A DNA stretch of 64,000 nucleotides, taken from Corynebacterium coyleae (GTDB taxonomy: Bacteria; Actinomycetota; Actinomycetes; Mycobacteriales; Mycobacteriaceae). Below are positions 4,534-64,000 of the stretch, piece by piece. The stretch lies in assembly GCF_030408635.1 (NCBI RefSeq), contig NZ_CP047198.1, positions 1,550,001 through 1,614,000 on the forward strand, in the 5' to 3' direction. How positions within the stretch are numbered: position 1 is the stretch's first letter; each line of letters begins with the position of its first letter. Below the pieces are notes generated by a model. The model was not told the DNA's origin and searched no databases. It saw only the letters and a list, made by a program, of their open reading frames with translations. A program made the position numbers and the translations under genes.

Positions 4534-4563
4534 GAAGAATACCTCCTATTGACACGTATGTGC

Positions 4564-5199
4564 TTATCGACGTTCCCCTGCCGCCAAATCTTCAAACACC
4601 AAGGGCGCTTCCGGCTGGAGCACATCGAGGCACGCGCGTGCGATCATTCTGATTTCTTTGTCTTCATATTTTCCGCTGTGCTTTTCGACGAAACCACGCC
4701 ACGCCCCGTACGACCCCGTGATTACCAGTTGCGTTGCGGTGGCTAACGGCAAAAGAGAACGGGCTGCTTCGGCGGCTCGTTTGCGCCGAGAGAGCAGGTT
4801 GGGGTCGTCGACAAGCACGTGCTCGAGACCGTCGAGGAGTTCTTGGCGGATGAATGCAATGTGTTCGATGGCGGTGTCAAACAGGTTGACGAGGTCCTCG
4901 TCTTCCGCGATGAGGTGTGGGACGACCGCGCCGTCGTCGTCACGCAGGCTCACCGCGAAACCGGGGTGTGCACGGATGATTTCTGCCGCGGCGCGCGATA
5001 CCCCGTACACGTGGAGGGTGGCGCTGGCGTGGGCGAGAAAGTCGGCGCGGTCGTCGTCGATAAGCCTGCGCAGCACTGTTTCGGCGTCGTGGGACGACAT
5101 TGCGGCGTGCGCGATAACCGCCTCTGCGTCGGTGACATCGGTGCCGCCTGCGGGGCGGGTGTTGCGCAGGGCGGTTGCGGCGACGAGTTCGGCACGCAT
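4564..5199 (-). CDS. ThyX-family protein lacking the catalytic signature (probable pseudoenzyme)
   Basis: A 211-residue protein aligning along its length with flavin-dependent thymidylate synthase ThyX, which occupies this position between dapB and dapA in Corynebacterium. Shared blocks: HASATLHVYGVSRAAAEIIR, the RRKRAAEAARSLLP region, and VITGSYGAWRGF followed by EIRMIA. The diagnostic RHRx7S motif for FAD/dUMP binding is gone: after EIIR the sequence reads AHPGFAVSL and is about four residues shorter. The N-terminal FAGRACYxS-like region and the arginine after GAWRGF also differ. I infer loss of thymidylate synthase activity. The frame is intact, and its ATG directly follows the dapB stop, so it is probably still translated. 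Confidence 0.8.
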   Translation of the reverse strand: MRAELVAATALRNTRPAGGTDVTDAEAVIAHAAMSSHDAETVLRRLIDDDRADFLAHASATLHVYGVSRAAAEIIRAHPGFAVSLRDDDGAVVPHLIAEDEDLVNLFDTAIEHIAFIRQELLDGLEHVLVDDPNLLSRRKRAAEAARSLLPLATATQLVITGSYGAWRGFVEKHSGKYEDKEIRMIARACLDVLQPEAPLVFEDLAAGERR

Positions 5200-5943
5200 T
5201 TAGAGCCCGAGGTACTCGTCGAGGCCGATCGTCAGACCTGGACGGTTGGCCACTTCGCGCACACCAGTCAAAACACCTGGGACGAAGGATTCACGGCCGT
5301 AAGAGTCCTGACGGATGGTCAGTGACTGATCGGTGGTGCCGAAAATGACCTCTTCGTGCGCGACCATGCCCTGCATGCGTACCGCGTGGACAGGCACACC
5401 GTCGACATCGGCGCCGCGGGAGCCGTCGAGTGCTTGCTCGGTCGCGTCCGGCATCGCGTCCATACCGGCTTCCTTGCGGGCCTGTGCAATCCCCTGCGCT
5501 GTCTTGACTGCGGTGCCGCTCGGCGCGTCGAGTTTGTTCGGGTGGTGGAACTCGACGACCTCCGCCGACTCGAAGAATGGCGCCGCCTGGCGGGCAAACG
5601 CCATGGTGAGTACCGCAGAGATGGCGAAGTTCGGAGCGATGAGCACGCCGACGCCCTCGTTGGCGGCGCACCAGTCGCGGACCTGCTGGTAGCGGGCATC
5701 GTCGAAGCCAGTCGTGCCAACAACGCAGTGGATGCCGTTGTTAATGCAGAACTCCAGGTTGTCCATCACCGCGTTCGGGGTGGTGAAATCGACGATGACG
5801 TCGACGCCTTCGTCGACAAGCGTTTGCAGCGAGTCCCCCTTGTTGATCTCCGCCGCCAGCTCGAGATCGTCCACCTTCTTCACCCCGGCGACGACTGCCG
5901 AGCCGACCTTGCCCTGTGCGCCAAGCACTCCAACCTTGATCAT
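5200..5943 (-). CDS. dapB: 4-hydroxy-tetrahydrodipicolinate reductase
   Basis: DapB reduces the DapA product with NAD(P)H in the lysine/diaminopimelate pathway. The 247-residue protein begins [17 protein letters not shown], the Rossmann glycine-rich loop. It carries VVGTTGF, the catalytic [15 protein letters not shown] block with the His-His pair and Lys, and an ending ([14 protein letters not shown]) close to that of other corynebacterial DapB proteins. ATG 5943 is chosen because AAAGG lies six bases upstream. The frame stays open much further upstream, but that part overlaps the divergent lipoprotein gene and has no family similarity. It is the first gene of the operon, and its stop touches the next ATG. 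Confidence 0.95.
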
Positions 5944-5998
5944 GTGCATCCTTTCTTTCGCTCGCCCGCAATGGTAGCGCCACCTAAGCTGGGCGACT

Positions 5999-6649
5999 AT
6001 GAAACGCCACACGACACTACTTATCCCGGGTGCCATTGCGGCGCTGCTGCTCGGCGCGTGCTCTGCGGACAACGACACCGGCACTGATTCCAATACCGAC
6101 GCCACCGTTACAGCACCAACGTCGCAGAGCACGACCGCTACCTCGAGCGAAGCGGCGACGACCACTGACGTCTCCCCTGCCGCAGCAGCTGCCCCCGTAG
6201 AGCCACCCACCAAAGATGGGTTCTCGCTCGAAGACACACACATCCAGTCCGAGCAACTCGCCGAGATGATGATCGAAGACGTGCGTGCTGGTTCGCACGA
6301 GGGATACGACCGCCTCGTAGTGGAACTGTCTGGCACCGGTTCGCCGAGCGTGATCGCCGGGTACGACACCGACCCGCGCCAGCAGGCTTCCGGCCTCCCA
6401 CTGAAACCCGCCGGTAATGCGTACTTCACGCTGATCATCCAGGGTGTGCCGCTAAGTATGTCTGCAGATGAGGCAGTCTTGGCTAAGTCCAGCCCCGCCG
6501 GCGTTGCGGCCGGCAGCATCACGGAGATCGCGGACGGCGGCGTGTACGAAGCGGACGCCCAGTACGTTGTCGGTTTGGACAAGCAGCGCCCGTACAAGCT
6601 CAGCGTGCTTGAAAACCCGACCCGCATCGTCGTGGACTTTCAGAAGTAA
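5999..6649 (+). CDS. Lipoprotein with AMIN-like domain
   Basis: A 216-residue predicted lipoprotein. The signal peptide ends in a lipobox (LLLGAC, Cys near residue 21), followed by a Thr/Ser/Ala-rich linker to about residue 65. The folded part has the pattern [18 protein letters not shown]...GYDTDP and ends [11 protein letters not shown]. This matches the AMIN-like domain found in many actinobacterial lipoproteins, which may bind cell-wall glycans. It diverges from dapB across a 55-base gap and overlaps the next small membrane gene by one base (TAATG), so the two are probably cotranslated. Confidence 0.8.
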
Positions 6650-61915: not shown

Positions 61916-61948
61916 CGTGCCCCGCCCGAGAAACTCGGACGGGGCACG
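61916..61948 (-). terminator. Terminator-like stem after rplS
   Basis: CGTGCCCCG (61916-61924) plus CCGAG (61926-61930) pairs with CTCGG (61934-61938) plus CGGGGCACG (61940-61948), one mismatch, AAA loop. It lies 14 bases after the rplS stop. The U-run on the minus strand is weak (TTGCG). Confidence 0.7.
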
Positions 61949-61962
61949 TGGTGCGGCTAAAA

Positions 61963-62310
61963 CTAGCGACGCTCCTTAATACGAGCAGCCTTACCGCGCA
62001 GATCGCGCATGTAGTACAGCTTCGCACGACGGACGTCACCCTTGCGGACGACCTCAATCTTCTCCAGGTTCGGGGAGTGCACCGGGAAGGTACGCTCAAC
62101 GCCGATGCCGAAGGAAACCTTGCGGACGGTGAAGGTCTCGCGGATACCGCTGCCCTGGCGACGCACAACGAAGCCAGTGAACACCTGAGTACGGGTCACA
62201 GAACCCTCGATAACCTTAACGTGAACGTCGAGGGTATCGCCCGGGCGGAAGTCCGGGATATCGTCACGGAGCTGGCCTGCGTCAACCAGATCAATAATGC
62301 CGTTGCTCAT
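61963..62310 (-). CDS. rplS: 50S ribosomal protein L19
   Basis: 115 residues, normal length. [111 protein letters not shown] is close to consensus L19, which sits at the interface between ribosomal subunits. AAGGATTG lies upstream of the ATG. About 115 bases separate it from tex. Confidence 0.97.
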
Positions 62311-62424
62311 GAAAGCAATCCTTTTCGTTTTCGGACAGAGGACCCTGGCGGCACTTCCCTAATCAGGGCGCTCGGCCGGTTCGTGTCGATTACAACAACC
62401 TGCAGCATTCTACATACTGCCCGG

Positions 62425-64000
62425 TCACTTCCCAAATCCGGCACGCTTGAGCGCGTCCGCCATCGAGCCAGATGCTTGACGACGATCACCGCCCCGGTTC
62501 TGGTTTCGCCCCTGGCGCTGCTTCTGACCGCCACGGTTCTGGCCACGGCTCTGCCCGCTGCGTTGTTTCTGGCTGGTGGTCTGGCCGGGCTGGCCAGGCT
62601 CGTCGTCAAGCCGCAGGCTCAACCCAATGCGGTTGCGAGCGACATCCACATCCATCACCTTGACCTTGACCACCTCGCCGGAGCGCACCACCTCGTGCGG
62701 GTCAGAGACAAACTTGTGGCTCATCGCGGAGACGTGAACCAGACCATCCTGGTGCACACCCACATCCACGAACGCGCCGAAAGCGGCAACATTGGTCACG
62801 GTTCCCTCGAGGATCATGCCGGGCTTGAGATCCTTGACCTCGTTGACGCCTTCCTTGAACTCCGCAGTTTTAAACTCAGGGCGCGGGTCGCGCCCCGGCT
62901 TGTCCAGCTCGGCGAGAATGTCGGTCACGGTAGGCACACCGAAAGTGTCGTCAGCGAAATCCGCCGGCTTGAGTTTGGTGAGTACCGCCGTGTTGCCAAT
63001 GAGTTGCTCGGTGTTCAGACCCGTCGCCTGGGCGACGCGCTCCACCACCGGGTAAGCCTCCGGGTGTACCGCTGAGCCATCGAGCGGGTTCTTCCCGCCC
63101 TGGATACGCAGGAAGCCAGCGGCCTGCTCGAATGCCTTCGGCCCCAGACGCGGAACCTTGCCCAACTCCTTGCGGGTAGCAAAACTGCCGTGCTCGTCGC
63201 GGTACGCCACGATGTTCTTCGCCACCGTGCCGGACAGACCAGCGACACGCTCAAGCAGCGGTGCCGAAGCGGTATTGACGTCCACGCCAACCGAGTTCAC
63301 CGCATCCTCCACCACAGCGTCCAACGTCTGTGCGAGCGCCGTCTGATTCACGTCGTGCTGGTACTGGCCCACGCCGATCGACTTCGGGTCAACCTTGACC
63401 AGTTCCGCCAACGGGTCCTGCAGGCGGCGCGCAATGGACACTGCGGAGCGCAGCGAGACATCCATGTCTGGGAACTCTTCGGCTGCGATCGGGCTTGCCG
63501 AATAGACCGACGCGCCTGATTCGGACACAACCACCGGAGTCGGGCGCTTGCCGCCAGCCTGTGCGATGAGGTCCGCTACCTCGCCGGCGAGCTTCTCCGA
63601 CTCGCGCGAGGCGGTGCCGTTGCCAATGGCGATGAGTTCCACCCCGTGCTGGGCAGCCAGCGAAGCCAACTCCGCGCGCGACGCGTCCCAACGGTTCTGC
63701 GGCTGGTGCGGGTAGACGATTGTCGTGGCCAGCACCTTGCCGGTGCCGTCCACAACCGCACACTTCACGCCGTTGCGGTACCCCGGATCAAGCGCGAGTG
63801 TGGAGCGCTGGCCTGCGGGGGCCGCGAGCAACACGTCACGCAGGTTGGTCTTGAACACCTGCAGCGCGCCCTCCTCGGCCTTTTCCTTCAGACGCATGCG
63901 GGTATCCAGGTTGGCCGACACCTGCAGTTTCGTGCGCCAACCCCACTGCACCGCCTTGGCCAGCCAGGCAGAGTCTTTCACCGGCAGATCGAAACGATCC
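62425..64000 (-). CDS. tex: Tex-family RNA-binding transcription accessory protein, C-terminal part
   Basis: The frame is open to the window edge, so the N-terminus is missing; about 525 residues are seen. In order: the end of the Tex N-terminal helical region, a YqgF/RNase H-like domain ([37 protein letters not shown]...[11 protein letters not shown]), paired helix-hairpin-helix elements ([32 protein letters not shown]), an S1 domain ([34 protein letters not shown]) and a Gln/Arg/Gly-rich tail that is an extension. Tex proteins bind nucleic acid and influence transcription and virulence gene expression in several bacteria. Confidence 0.94.

What the first reader, a model, noticed from the sequence alone, without database searches (positions are those of the whole stretch)
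4562..62611. A gapped 12-mer, TCGTCGNNAAGC, is hugely over-represented across the window
By eye I count 32 exact copies on the two strands, starting at 4680, 4805, 5054, 5810, 8009, 8485, 8900, 11267, 11942, 14311, 14874, 19454, 19470, 22456, 24283, 24920, 26169, 26922, 27893, 32024, 34041, 37632, 43447, 44091, 45471, 45918, 51819, 53105, 59231, 60808, 62474 and 62600. There is also an 11/12 match at 4562. Ten fixed bases should appear about 0.15 times here at roughly 60% GC. Orientation is balanced (17 to 15), unlike Chi or FtsK-orienting sequences. Codon choice does not explain it: the word is read as Leu-x-Asp-Asp/Glu, Val-x-Lys, Ser-Ser-x-Ser, Ala-Leu-Arg-Arg and Arg-Arg-x, and it also lies between genes. 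Where it encodes Leu it forces CTT, which looks rare in neighbouring genes. The gap is mostly AT, CA, AA or AC. Related TTTACGACGA words appear near 7190, 8813 and 37925. Dense, symmetric, in-gene words that also form inverted pairs at gene ends are the hallmark of DNA uptake sequences in Neisseriaceae and Pasteurellaceae. I know of none described for Corynebacterium. A methylation or nucleoid-protein site is also possible.
Basis: partly seen in the sequence, partly recalled or inferred. Interest (0 to 1): 0.85.

Follow-up and report, generated by a model that had tools for sequence, protein, structure and literature searches.

The report
DNA-uptake-like word with species dialects
A short DNA word, found about once every two thousand letters in this genome and common in most sampled Corynebacterium species, comes in species-specific "dialects" that have been rewritten in concert, which looks like a self-recognition tag for taking up DNA from relatives; if confirmed, it would be an unexpected form of bacterial sex in this group.

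Summary
TCGTCGNNAAGC occurs 33 times in the window (32 as listed, plus 39292; chance 0.22) and 863 times in the 2.51-Mb Corynebacterium genome (backward control 20). It is strand-balanced, lies in and between genes, is 16-fold above codon-shuffled genes, scarce in a prophage and an IS/defence island, and conserved about four times better than same-phase control words. Of 242 genomes of the genus, 169 have 195-1964 copies of the core CGTCGNNAAGC (one of them CATCGNNAAGC as well). Thirteen use CATCGNNAAGC instead, and one "negative" has an unrelated 1144-copy word. None of 120 genomes of the order outside the genus shows the word. Between two genomes of sister clades (78% DNA identity), 13 of 15 aligned CATCG sites are CGTCG: a concerted one-base switch; CATCG is polyphyletic on the tree. 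DNA uptake sequences and their dialects behave so. The usual uptake genes (comEA/comEC, Tad/Flp pilus, dprA-comM) are present, dprA and comM in the window. Best reading (about 0.7): a DNA uptake sequence system, new for Gram-positives as far as I could search. Not shown: that any Corynebacterium takes up DNA, which protein reads the word, or why motif-less species keep the machinery.

The parts
4562..4572 (-). core word CGTCGNNAAGC (preceded by A)
   Evidence: kept in G002, G052, G095
4680..4691 (-). TCGTCGNNAAGC
4805..4816 (+). TCGTCGNNAAGC
5054..5065 (+). TCGTCGNNAAGC
5810..5821 (+). TCGTCGNNAAGC
8009..8020 (-). TCGTCGNNAAGC
8485..8496 (+). TCGTCGNNAAGC
8900..8911 (-). TCGTCGNNAAGC
11267..11278 (+). 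TCGTCGNNAAGC
11942..11953 (-). TCGTCGNNAAGC
13763..13773 (+). core word CGTCGNNAAGC (preceded by C)
14311..14322 (+). TCGTCGNNAAGC
14874..14885 (-). TCGTCGNNAAGC
19454..19465 (+). TCGTCGNNAAGC, left arm of an inverted pair between convergent predicted genes
   Evidence: hairpin of the pair -18 kcal/mol, z -3.5
19470..19481 (-). TCGTCGNNAAGC, right arm of the inverted pair
22456..22467 (-). TCGTCGNNAAGC
24283..24294 (+). TCGTCGNNAAGC
24920..24931 (-). TCGTCGNNAAGC
26169..26180 (+). TCGTCGNNAAGC
26922..26933 (+). TCGTCGNNAAGC
27893..27904 (-). TCGTCGNNAAGC
29893..29903 (+). core word CGTCGNNAAGC (preceded by G)
32024..32035 (-). TCGTCGNNAAGC
34041..34052 (-). TCGTCGNNAAGC
34863..34873 (-). core word CGTCGNNAAGC (preceded by C)
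37632..37643 (+). TCGTCGNNAAGC
39292..39303 (-).
43447..43458 (+). TCGTCGNNAAGC
44091..44102 (-). TCGTCGNNAAGC
45471..45482 (+). TCGTCGNNAAGC
45918..45929 (-). TCGTCGNNAAGC
51766..51776 (-). core word CGTCGNNAAGC (preceded by C)
51819..51830 (+). TCGTCGNNAAGC
53105..53116 (-). TCGTCGNNAAGC
59231..59242 (+). TCGTCGNNAAGC, inside the predicted comM/yifB gene
60808..60819 (+). TCGTCGNNAAGC
62474..62485 (-). TCGTCGNNAAGC
62600..62611 (+). TCGTCGNNAAGC
56933..58204 (-). dprA (open frame; predicted gene start at 58108), possible recombination mediator for incoming DNA
   Evidence: PF02481 E 4e-62, TIGR00732
58105..59808 (-). comM/yifB-like AAA ATPase (open frame; predicted gene start at 59670)
   Evidence: TIGR00368 E 1.7e-126; that ComM acts in transformation is recalled

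Best explanation
TCGTCGNNAAGC is the local dialect of a DNA uptake sequence used by most of the genus Corynebacterium. A receptor exposed outside the cell binds duplex DNA that carries the core CGTCGNNAAGC (CATCGNNAAGC in other species). It is most likely a minor pilin of the Tad/Flp pilus (TadE- or TadF-like), or ComEA. The pilus pulls the DNA in, ComEA and ComEC pass one strand through the membrane, and DprA, ComM and RecA recombine it. Tagged DNA is taken up more often, so tagged alleles replace untagged ones and the word accumulates, to about one per 2 kb in G000, throughout inherited DNA, at the cost of unusual codons and even amino acids. Mobile DNA that enters by other routes stays poor in it. 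When the receptor's preference shifts, existing sites are rewritten base by base, giving dialects. SHOWN: abundance, symmetry, indifference to genes, DNA-level conservation, scarcity in two mobile regions, dialects, concerted switch, presence of the genes. INFERRED: that uptake is the driving process, and which protein reads the word.
For: Abundance. Codon choice excluded: 140 against 8.9, with excess in frames that should hardly ever hold it (Ser-Ser-x-Ser 17 against 0.03). Strand balance: 91,778 against 91,693 over 169 genomes and in both halves of the G000 chromosome sample. Conserved as DNA: 24/35, 17/33, 14/35 and 16/34 aligned window sites kept in four relatives against 10-16% of same-phase control words; core identity 0.83-0.93 against flanks 0.74-0.78. 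One-mismatch words: changes inside CGTCG at chance (27 against 31), changes at the first T and in the last three bases in excess. Mobile DNA: prophage 2 observed, 9.6 expected; island 0 observed, 5.3 expected. Dialects. Concerted switch: G001 against G222 13 of 15, G143 against G222 12 of 14, G101 against G222 7 of 8; CATCG polyphyletic on the tree. Dialect base: position -1 is 100% identical at kept sites with the same-dialect relative but 47-50% with other-dialect relatives, below the flanks at 76-79%. Genes. Precedents: M. luteus needs two tad clusters for transformation (PMC4322843, passages); Neisseriaceae have DUS dialects (PMC3630211, passages) and low DUS density in genomic islands (PMC7371117, passages).
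Against: No natural transformation of any Corynebacterium appeared in my search listings. The machinery does not discriminate: ComEC 241/242, TadA 239/242 (232 over the curated cut-off), Flp 238/242 and DprA 242/242, including motif-less genomes. No protein of the two loci covaries with dialect beyond control genes. Close inverted pairs are not in excess. The two mobile regions were examined because they were the two poorest of 21 pieces, so their P values are post hoc. CG to CA is also the trace of methyl-C deamination. The most distant CATCG lineages (G106, G096, G128) share 0 or 1 aligned site with any CGTCG genome compared.
Confidence: 0.7

Rival explanations
1. A HIP1-like genome-wide word kept by a DNA methyltransferase or by the repair it steers; the dialects are different methyltransferase targets or deamination products.
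For: Abundant words tied to methylation exist in cyanobacteria (HIP1; recalled). The CGTCG to CATCG change is a CpG to CpA change, as methyl-C deamination gives.
Against: The word is not palindromic and its 2-base gap is shorter than in usual type I targets (recalled). The T dialect differs at shared sites by several kinds of substitution, not one, and G012's word is unrelated. Deamination destroys sites; it does not by itself explain about 1000 of them.
Confidence: 0.12
2. Binding site of a nucleoid or chromosome-segregation protein that organises the chromosome.
For: Chromosome-wide, and scarce in the two mobile regions seen.
Against: Sites are spaced at random (CV 0.95), symmetric in both chromosome halves, switch dialect between sister clades and are missing, in both forms, from 49 of 242 genomes.
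Confidence: 0.08
3. A recombination hotspot word (Chi-like) acting inside the cell rather than at uptake.
For: A bias in recombination towards the word would also spread it through inherited DNA (inference).
Against: Chi is biased to the leading strand (recalled); this word is balanced: 51/51 and 60/53 in the two halves.
Confidence: 0.05
4. By-product of codon usage, a common peptide motif or dispersed small repeats.
For: 85 of 140 genic sites read Leu-x-Asp-Asp/Glu on the gene strand.
Against: Codon shuffles keep peptide and usage yet give 8.9; sites also lie between genes and in unlikely frames; flanks are unrelated; spacer and flanks diverge while the core stays.
Confidence: 0.02

Closest known systems
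DNA uptake sequences (DUS) of Neisseriaceae
   Same: Short word with very many copies per genome (about 1900 in N. meningitidis), species dialects around a shared core, some differing by one base, low density in genomic islands (PMC3630211 and PMC7371117, passages read).
   Different: Gram-positive mycolate bacteria; unrelated, gapped word (5-N2-4); Tad/Flp pilus rather than the Neisseria type IV pilus; receptor not identified (a ComP homologue was not searched for); close inverted pairs not enriched; uptake not shown.
Uptake signal sequences (USS) of Pasteurellaceae
   Same: Abundant word with dialects and a long-unknown receptor; a minor pilin, ComN/PpdA, has been predicted (PMC12616744, passages).
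   Different: Different word and pilus family; the USS is followed by AT-rich segments (recalled), here only a mild preference for A just behind the word was seen.
Tad/Flp-dependent transformation of Micrococcus luteus
   Same: Actinobacterium using Tad pili plus comEA/comEC (PMC4322843, passages); the same gene sets are here.
   Different: That paper has no hit for 'uptake sequence'; M. luteus needs two tad clusters, and G000 has one TadA match.
HIP1 of cyanobacteria (recalled)
   Same: Genome-wide abundant word.
   Different: HIP1 is a palindrome linked to methylation and not known for dialects (recalled).

Membership tests
DNA uptake sequence (DUS/USS) | Hundreds to thousands of copies of one short word, far above chance | tested here: met
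   863 exact; Markov 5.9 against 161 in 457 kb
DNA uptake sequence (DUS/USS) | Both strands equally, without replication polarity | tested here: met
   91,778 against 91,693; 51/51 and 60/53 by chromosome half in the sample
DNA uptake sequence (DUS/USS) | Found inside and between genes irrespective of frame | tested here: met
   140 genic, 17 intergenic, 4 straddling of 161; densities 0.34 and 0.43 per kb; five of six frames
DNA uptake sequence (DUS/USS) | Poor in recently acquired mobile DNA | tested here: met
   One prophage and one island in G000, P 0.004 and 0.005, post hoc because they were chosen as the poorest pieces. Two plasmids at background, but their hosts' chromosomal dialect is unknown
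DNA uptake sequence (DUS/USS) | Species dialects around an invariant core | tested here: met
DNA uptake sequence (DUS/USS) | Inverted pairs at gene ends in excess | tested here: inconclusive
   7 close pairs, all inverted (5 of them in the 21 sample pieces), but short gaps as frequent as in a random model
DNA uptake sequence (DUS/USS) | Carrier has competence machinery | tested here: met
   comEA/comEC, tad locus, dprA, comM; equally present in motif-less genomes
DNA uptake sequence (DUS/USS) | DNA with the word is bound and taken up preferentially | not testable with these tools
   needs uptake experiments
DNA uptake sequence (DUS/USS) | A sequence-specific receptor (ComP-like minor pilin) | tested here: inconclusive
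   no dialect-covarying protein among 15 compared; candidates remain TadE/TadF-like pilins and ComEA
Chi / KOPS polarity word | Strand bias relative to replication | tested here: not met
HIP1-like methylation word | Palindromic, methylated | tested here: not met
   the word is not its own reverse complement; methylation not tested

The most novel reading that the evidence does not exclude
Most Corynebacterium species run a sequence-specific, self-recognising DNA uptake system through a Tad/Flp pilus. It is a separate, Gram-positive counterpart of the Neisseria and Haemophilus systems, with at least three related dialects (TCGTCG-, CGTCG- and CATCG-NNAAGC) and one unrelated word (TGACGNCGCG). 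Dialects switched more than once by concerted rewriting of about a thousand sites, so they set partial barriers to gene exchange between species, including those of human skin and mucosa.
Probability: 0.6. Interest if true: 0.95.

Novelty: new variant of a known kind. Interest (0 to 1): 0.9.

Why it matters
In the passages I saw, uptake sequences are described for two Gram-negative families. A further, separate case in mycolate Gram-positives would show that self-tagging of DNA has arisen more than once and works with a Tad pilus. It would predict that most Corynebacterium species transform naturally although my searches brought up none that do, give a practical rule for moving DNA into them (donor DNA should carry the right dialect), and help to explain gene-flow barriers between species. 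With 182 strongly positive genomes and polyphyletic dialects, the genus is also a good system for finding a receptor by co-evolution.

Tried and rejected
Codon bias, peptide motif and compositional artefact: rejected by codon shuffles and Markov models. Replication-polar word: rejected. Presence or absence of ComEC, TadA, Flp or DprA as the cause of motif loss: rejected, all near-universal. The three genomes with the weakest DprA (G029, G112, G162) are all motif-less, which is suggestive only. TadA matches in G167, G168 and G189 are only E 1e-4 to 6e-4 and G198, G203, G204 have none; these are fragmented or incomplete assemblies, and four of the six (G167, G168, G189, G198) are rich in the word.

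Receptor by covariation: 15 proteins of the tad and comEA/comEC loci, at most 23 genomes each, compared at the CATCG/CGTCG sister split. ComEA had 0 dialect-like and 2 opposite residues, TadE 0/0, TadF 1/0, while the control helicase had 10/4, so nothing stands out. For the comEA/comEC side the lineages G106, G096 and G128 were not fetched, so that test is weaker.

Other words in motif-less genomes: G007 (100 kb) and eleven further genomes besides G012 (32-72 kb each) gave no word as strong as the positive control (z 33). G021 (z 22) and G029 (z 18) gave words that I did not follow. G012 gave TGACGNCGCG (z 27), confirmed genome-wide. A word from C. phocae (GCGACNAAGAA) was at background in all 65 genomes searched, none known to be C. 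phocae, so it is probably a local repeat.

Rows left out: genomes were classed by thresholds I chose; G024 was counted with CGTCG although it has 1337 CATCG sites. Window sites that did not align were dropped (38 reduced to 35, 33, 35, 34). One search used a stricter alignment (12 shared sites with each of G002, G052 and G095). Genes containing N were left out of the codon shuffles. N runs make up 7.2 kb of the 464-kb G000 sample. I did not scan the other 19 sample pieces for phage or IS genes. No structures were predicted.

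
Full report
WHAT IS THERE. The window is 1,550,001-1,614,000 of a one-contig 2,508,772-base genome, G000. 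Its genus is Corynebacterium: TadA of G000 is 86% identical to C. haemomassiliense, the best named match. TCGTCGNNAAGC occurs 33 times in the window (17 +, 16 -; 0.22 expected) and 863 times in the genome (447 +, 416 -; backward control 20). In 457 kb of this genome an order-5 Markov model gives 5.9 against 161, and no other 6-N2-4 gapped word is as common. One-mismatch words show the anatomy. Changes inside CGTCG stay at chance (27 against 31 expected over the five positions), and so does the first A of AAGC (15 against 16). Changes at the leading T (54 against 9.5) and at the last three bases (74, 27 and 55 against 12.9, 9.5 and 8.9) are in excess, above all TCGTCGNNACGC (59 against 5.6). 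So the core is CGTCG-N2-A(A/c)GC, with T in front and A or G behind preferred in this species.

NOT A BY-PRODUCT OF GENES. Of 161 sites in the sample, 140 lie in predicted genes, 17 between genes and 4 straddle; density is 0.34 and 0.43 per kb. Shuffling synonymous codons gives 8.9 +/- 2.9 against 140. The excess covers five of the six readings, including ones that are almost impossible by chance: Ser-Ser-x-Ser 17 against 0.03, a second sense frame 7 against 0.13, Ala-Leu-Arg-Arg-like 5 against 0.01. The G-rich three-base rhythm upstream follows the favoured antisense frame (Leu-x-Asp-Asp/Glu, 85 sites) and needs no further explanation (inference). CTT is an ordinary Leu codon here.

SELECTED AS DNA. 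I aligned the window with the same region of G099 (82% identity) and of G002, G052 and G095 (80%). Kept as the core word were 24 of 35, 17 of 33, 14 of 35 and 16 of 34 aligned sites, against 15.7, 11.9, 10.4 and 12.4% of nine-base control words in the same codon phase. Core identity over all aligned sites is 0.83-0.93, spacer 0.68-0.80 and flanks 0.74-0.78. There is also turnover: 18, 12, 9 and 11 aligned sites of the relatives are absent from the window.

RANDOMLY SPACED, SYMMETRIC, SCARCE IN MOBILE DNA. Spacing is close to exponential (mean 1947, CV 0.95). Strands are 51/51 and 60/53 in the two chromosome halves of the sample. Two of the 21 sampled pieces are poor (2 sites in 20 kb each). 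L037 is a prophage (major head, tape measure and endolysin families) with 2 sites where 9.6 are expected. L045 holds IS21 elements, RloB, an AAA ATPase and GmrSD, with 0 sites in 10.4 kb where 5.3 are expected. These two were looked at because they were poorest, so their P values (0.004, 0.005) are post hoc, and I did not scan the other pieces for mobile genes. Two Corynebacterium plasmids (100 kb together) carry two CGTCG and one CATCG words, i.e. background; the chromosomal dialect of their hosts is not known to me. Inverted pairs exist, for example 19454/19470 between convergent predicted genes (hairpin -18 kcal/mol, z -3.5). All seven pairs closer than 80 bases in 23 loci are inverted, but short gaps are not more frequent than a random model predicts.

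A GENUS-WIDE FEATURE WITH DIALECTS. Over 242 genomes of the genus (classes by thresholds), 169 have 195-1964 copies of CGTCGNNAAGC (133 of them 800 or more). Thirteen have 490-1184 copies of CATCGNNAAGC instead. G024, one of the 169, has both (352 and 1337); three have weak CATCG, eight are intermediate and 49 have neither. Backward controls of the CGTCG word are 20-119. Among the 169 the two strands sum to 91,778 and 91,693. The T-first dialect (over 0.7 of sites TCGTCG) marks G000, G022, G035, G098, G099 and G129. Relatives of G222 read GGCGTCG, and G001 and its kin GGCATCG. Of 22 named Corynebacterium loci, positives include C. haemomassiliense, C. pilosum, C. urinipleomorphum, C. bouchesdurhonense and C. 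lemuris (CGTCG) and C. phoceense (CATCG). C. meridianum, C. pygosceleis, C. mastitidis, C. phocae and C. otitidis have at most one of each word in about 21 kb. Outside the genus, 120 of 120 genomes of the order stay within about 1.6 times their backward control, and 58 loci of other genera hold 13 CGTCG and 13 CATCG words in 1.12 Mb.

AN UNRELATED WORD IN ONE 'NEGATIVE'. G012 lacks both words but has TGACGNCGCG 1144 times (control 50); the other 64 genomes searched stay near background, the highest being G021 with 143 against a control of 30. In samples of twelve further motif-less genomes (G007, eleven) no word was as strong as in the positive control, but G021 and G029 gave words (z 22, z 18) that I did not follow.

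THE CONCERTED SWITCH. In the tad and comEC loci I asked what stands in CGTCG genomes where a CATCG genome has its word. G001 against G222 (78% DNA identity): 15 aligned, 13 are CGTCGNNAAGC, 0 CATCG, 2 neither. G143 against G222: 12 of 14. G101 against G222: 7 of 8. G001 against G219, G181 and G105: 13 of 15, 12 of 16 and 10 of 16, with one unchanged CATCG in each of the last two. Farther pairs are weaker (G004 against G000 4 of 6), and G106, G096 and G128 share 0 or 1 site with any CGTCG genome compared. On a tree of six concatenated proteins the CATCG clade {G001, G143, G101} is sister to the CGTCG clade {G034, G105, G181, G219, G222} with full support, while {G004, G027, G164, G209}, G106 and {G096, G128} lie elsewhere. 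Several deep nodes are poorly supported (0.08-0.64), so I can say that the base changed more than once, but not in which direction each time. The T dialect behaves alike: at kept sites the base before the core is identical to G099 (same dialect) in 100% but to G002, G052 and G095 in 47-50%, below the 76-79% of the flanks, through T/G, T/A and T/C differences. G022 is T-rich (0.90) although G010 (0.47) and G002 (0.35), which are closer to G000 (0.72) on the tree, are less so. A single deamination process does not produce that.

MACHINERY. G000 has a locus ssd-tadA-tadB-tadC-flp-tadE-tadF (tadB and tadC named by position without a family hit, tadE by a match under its curated cut-off) and comEA-comEC. 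dprA and a comM/yifB-like gene lie in the window. Micrococcus luteus, another actinobacterium, needs two tad clusters for transformation (PMC4322843, passages), and the combination tad plus comEA/comEC is stated there to be frequent in actinobacteria. Genus-wide: ComEC 241 of 242, TadA 239 (232 over the curated cut-off), Flp 238, DprA 242. The same genes are in motif-less genomes, so gene presence does not explain the word's distribution. Either those species take up DNA without a word, or have other words, or have lost competence without losing these genes.

RECEPTOR. I could not name it. Fixed differences at the sister split, checked against the other lineages, gave no protein with more dialect-like residues than the control genes. 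In Neisseria the receptor is a minor pilin, ComP (PMC6370729, passages), and a minor pilin is predicted for Pasteurellaceae (PMC12616744, passages), so the TadE- and TadF-like pilins are my first candidates, ComEA the next.

COMPARISON. In Neisseriaceae, eight DUS dialects share an essential core, some differing by a single base, with about 1900 copies in N. meningitidis (PMC3630211, passages). DUS density, one per 400-1100 bases, drops in genomic islands (PMC7371117, passages). The present word shows the same pattern with a different sequence, phylum and pilus. It works like a DUS on most of the genomic evidence. Membership is open because preferential uptake, the defining property, could not be tested.

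UNEXPLAINED. Why 48 genomes lack both words and G012's (12 of them sampled for others); whether the second-rank word TCGTCGNNACGC is functional; which protein changed at each switch.

One search recomputed the class limits, the T fractions, the one-mismatch table by position and the close pairs.

Noticed in passing
G012 (L212, L213; whole genome): An unrelated word TGACGNCGCG occurs 1144 times in a 2.03-Mb Corynebacterium genome (control 50) and near background in the 64 other genomes searched: possibly a separate uptake word.
   Followed up: partly
G000 720-740 kb (L037): Prophage with head, tail and endolysin genes, poor in the word.
   Followed up: partly
G000 1800-1820 kb (L045): Lower-GC island with IS21 elements, RloB, an AAA ATPase and GmrSD, probably a defence island, without the word over 10 kb.
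   Followed up: partly
G029, G112, G162: The three weakest DprA matches of 242 (E 1.9e-16, 1.4e-37, 1.2e-29) are all in motif-less genomes: possible decay of competence.
   Followed up: no
about 30 motif-less genomes, e.g. G007, G036, G049, G213, G241: TadA scores are clearly lower (E about 1e-109 to 1e-125) than in most positives (mostly 1e-126 and better; a few fragments score lower); probably one clade, not examined.
   Followed up: no
L105:3349-5545 (G001, beside the comEC locus): Two adjacent genes, the first resembling a Dam-type adenine methyltransferase (named from its first residues by recall), perhaps a restriction-modification pair, not seen at the G000 locus.
   Followed up: no
G099 sample L062-L064: Unrelated words such as AAAGTTCCC and CCAACAACT are over-represented in this 60-kb sample.
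   Followed up: no
G007 sample L065-L069: A palindromic gapped word TAGACNNNNNNGTCTA, 8 hits (each site counted on both strands) against 0.04 expected.
   Followed up: no
G021 sample L238-L239: CGGAGAACA 12 times against 0.17 expected in 40 kb; G021 also has 143 TGACGNCGCG against a control of 30.
   Followed up: no
G000 sample (window, L031-L050): TCGTCGNNACGC is a second-rank word, 59 against 5.6 expected.
   Followed up: partly
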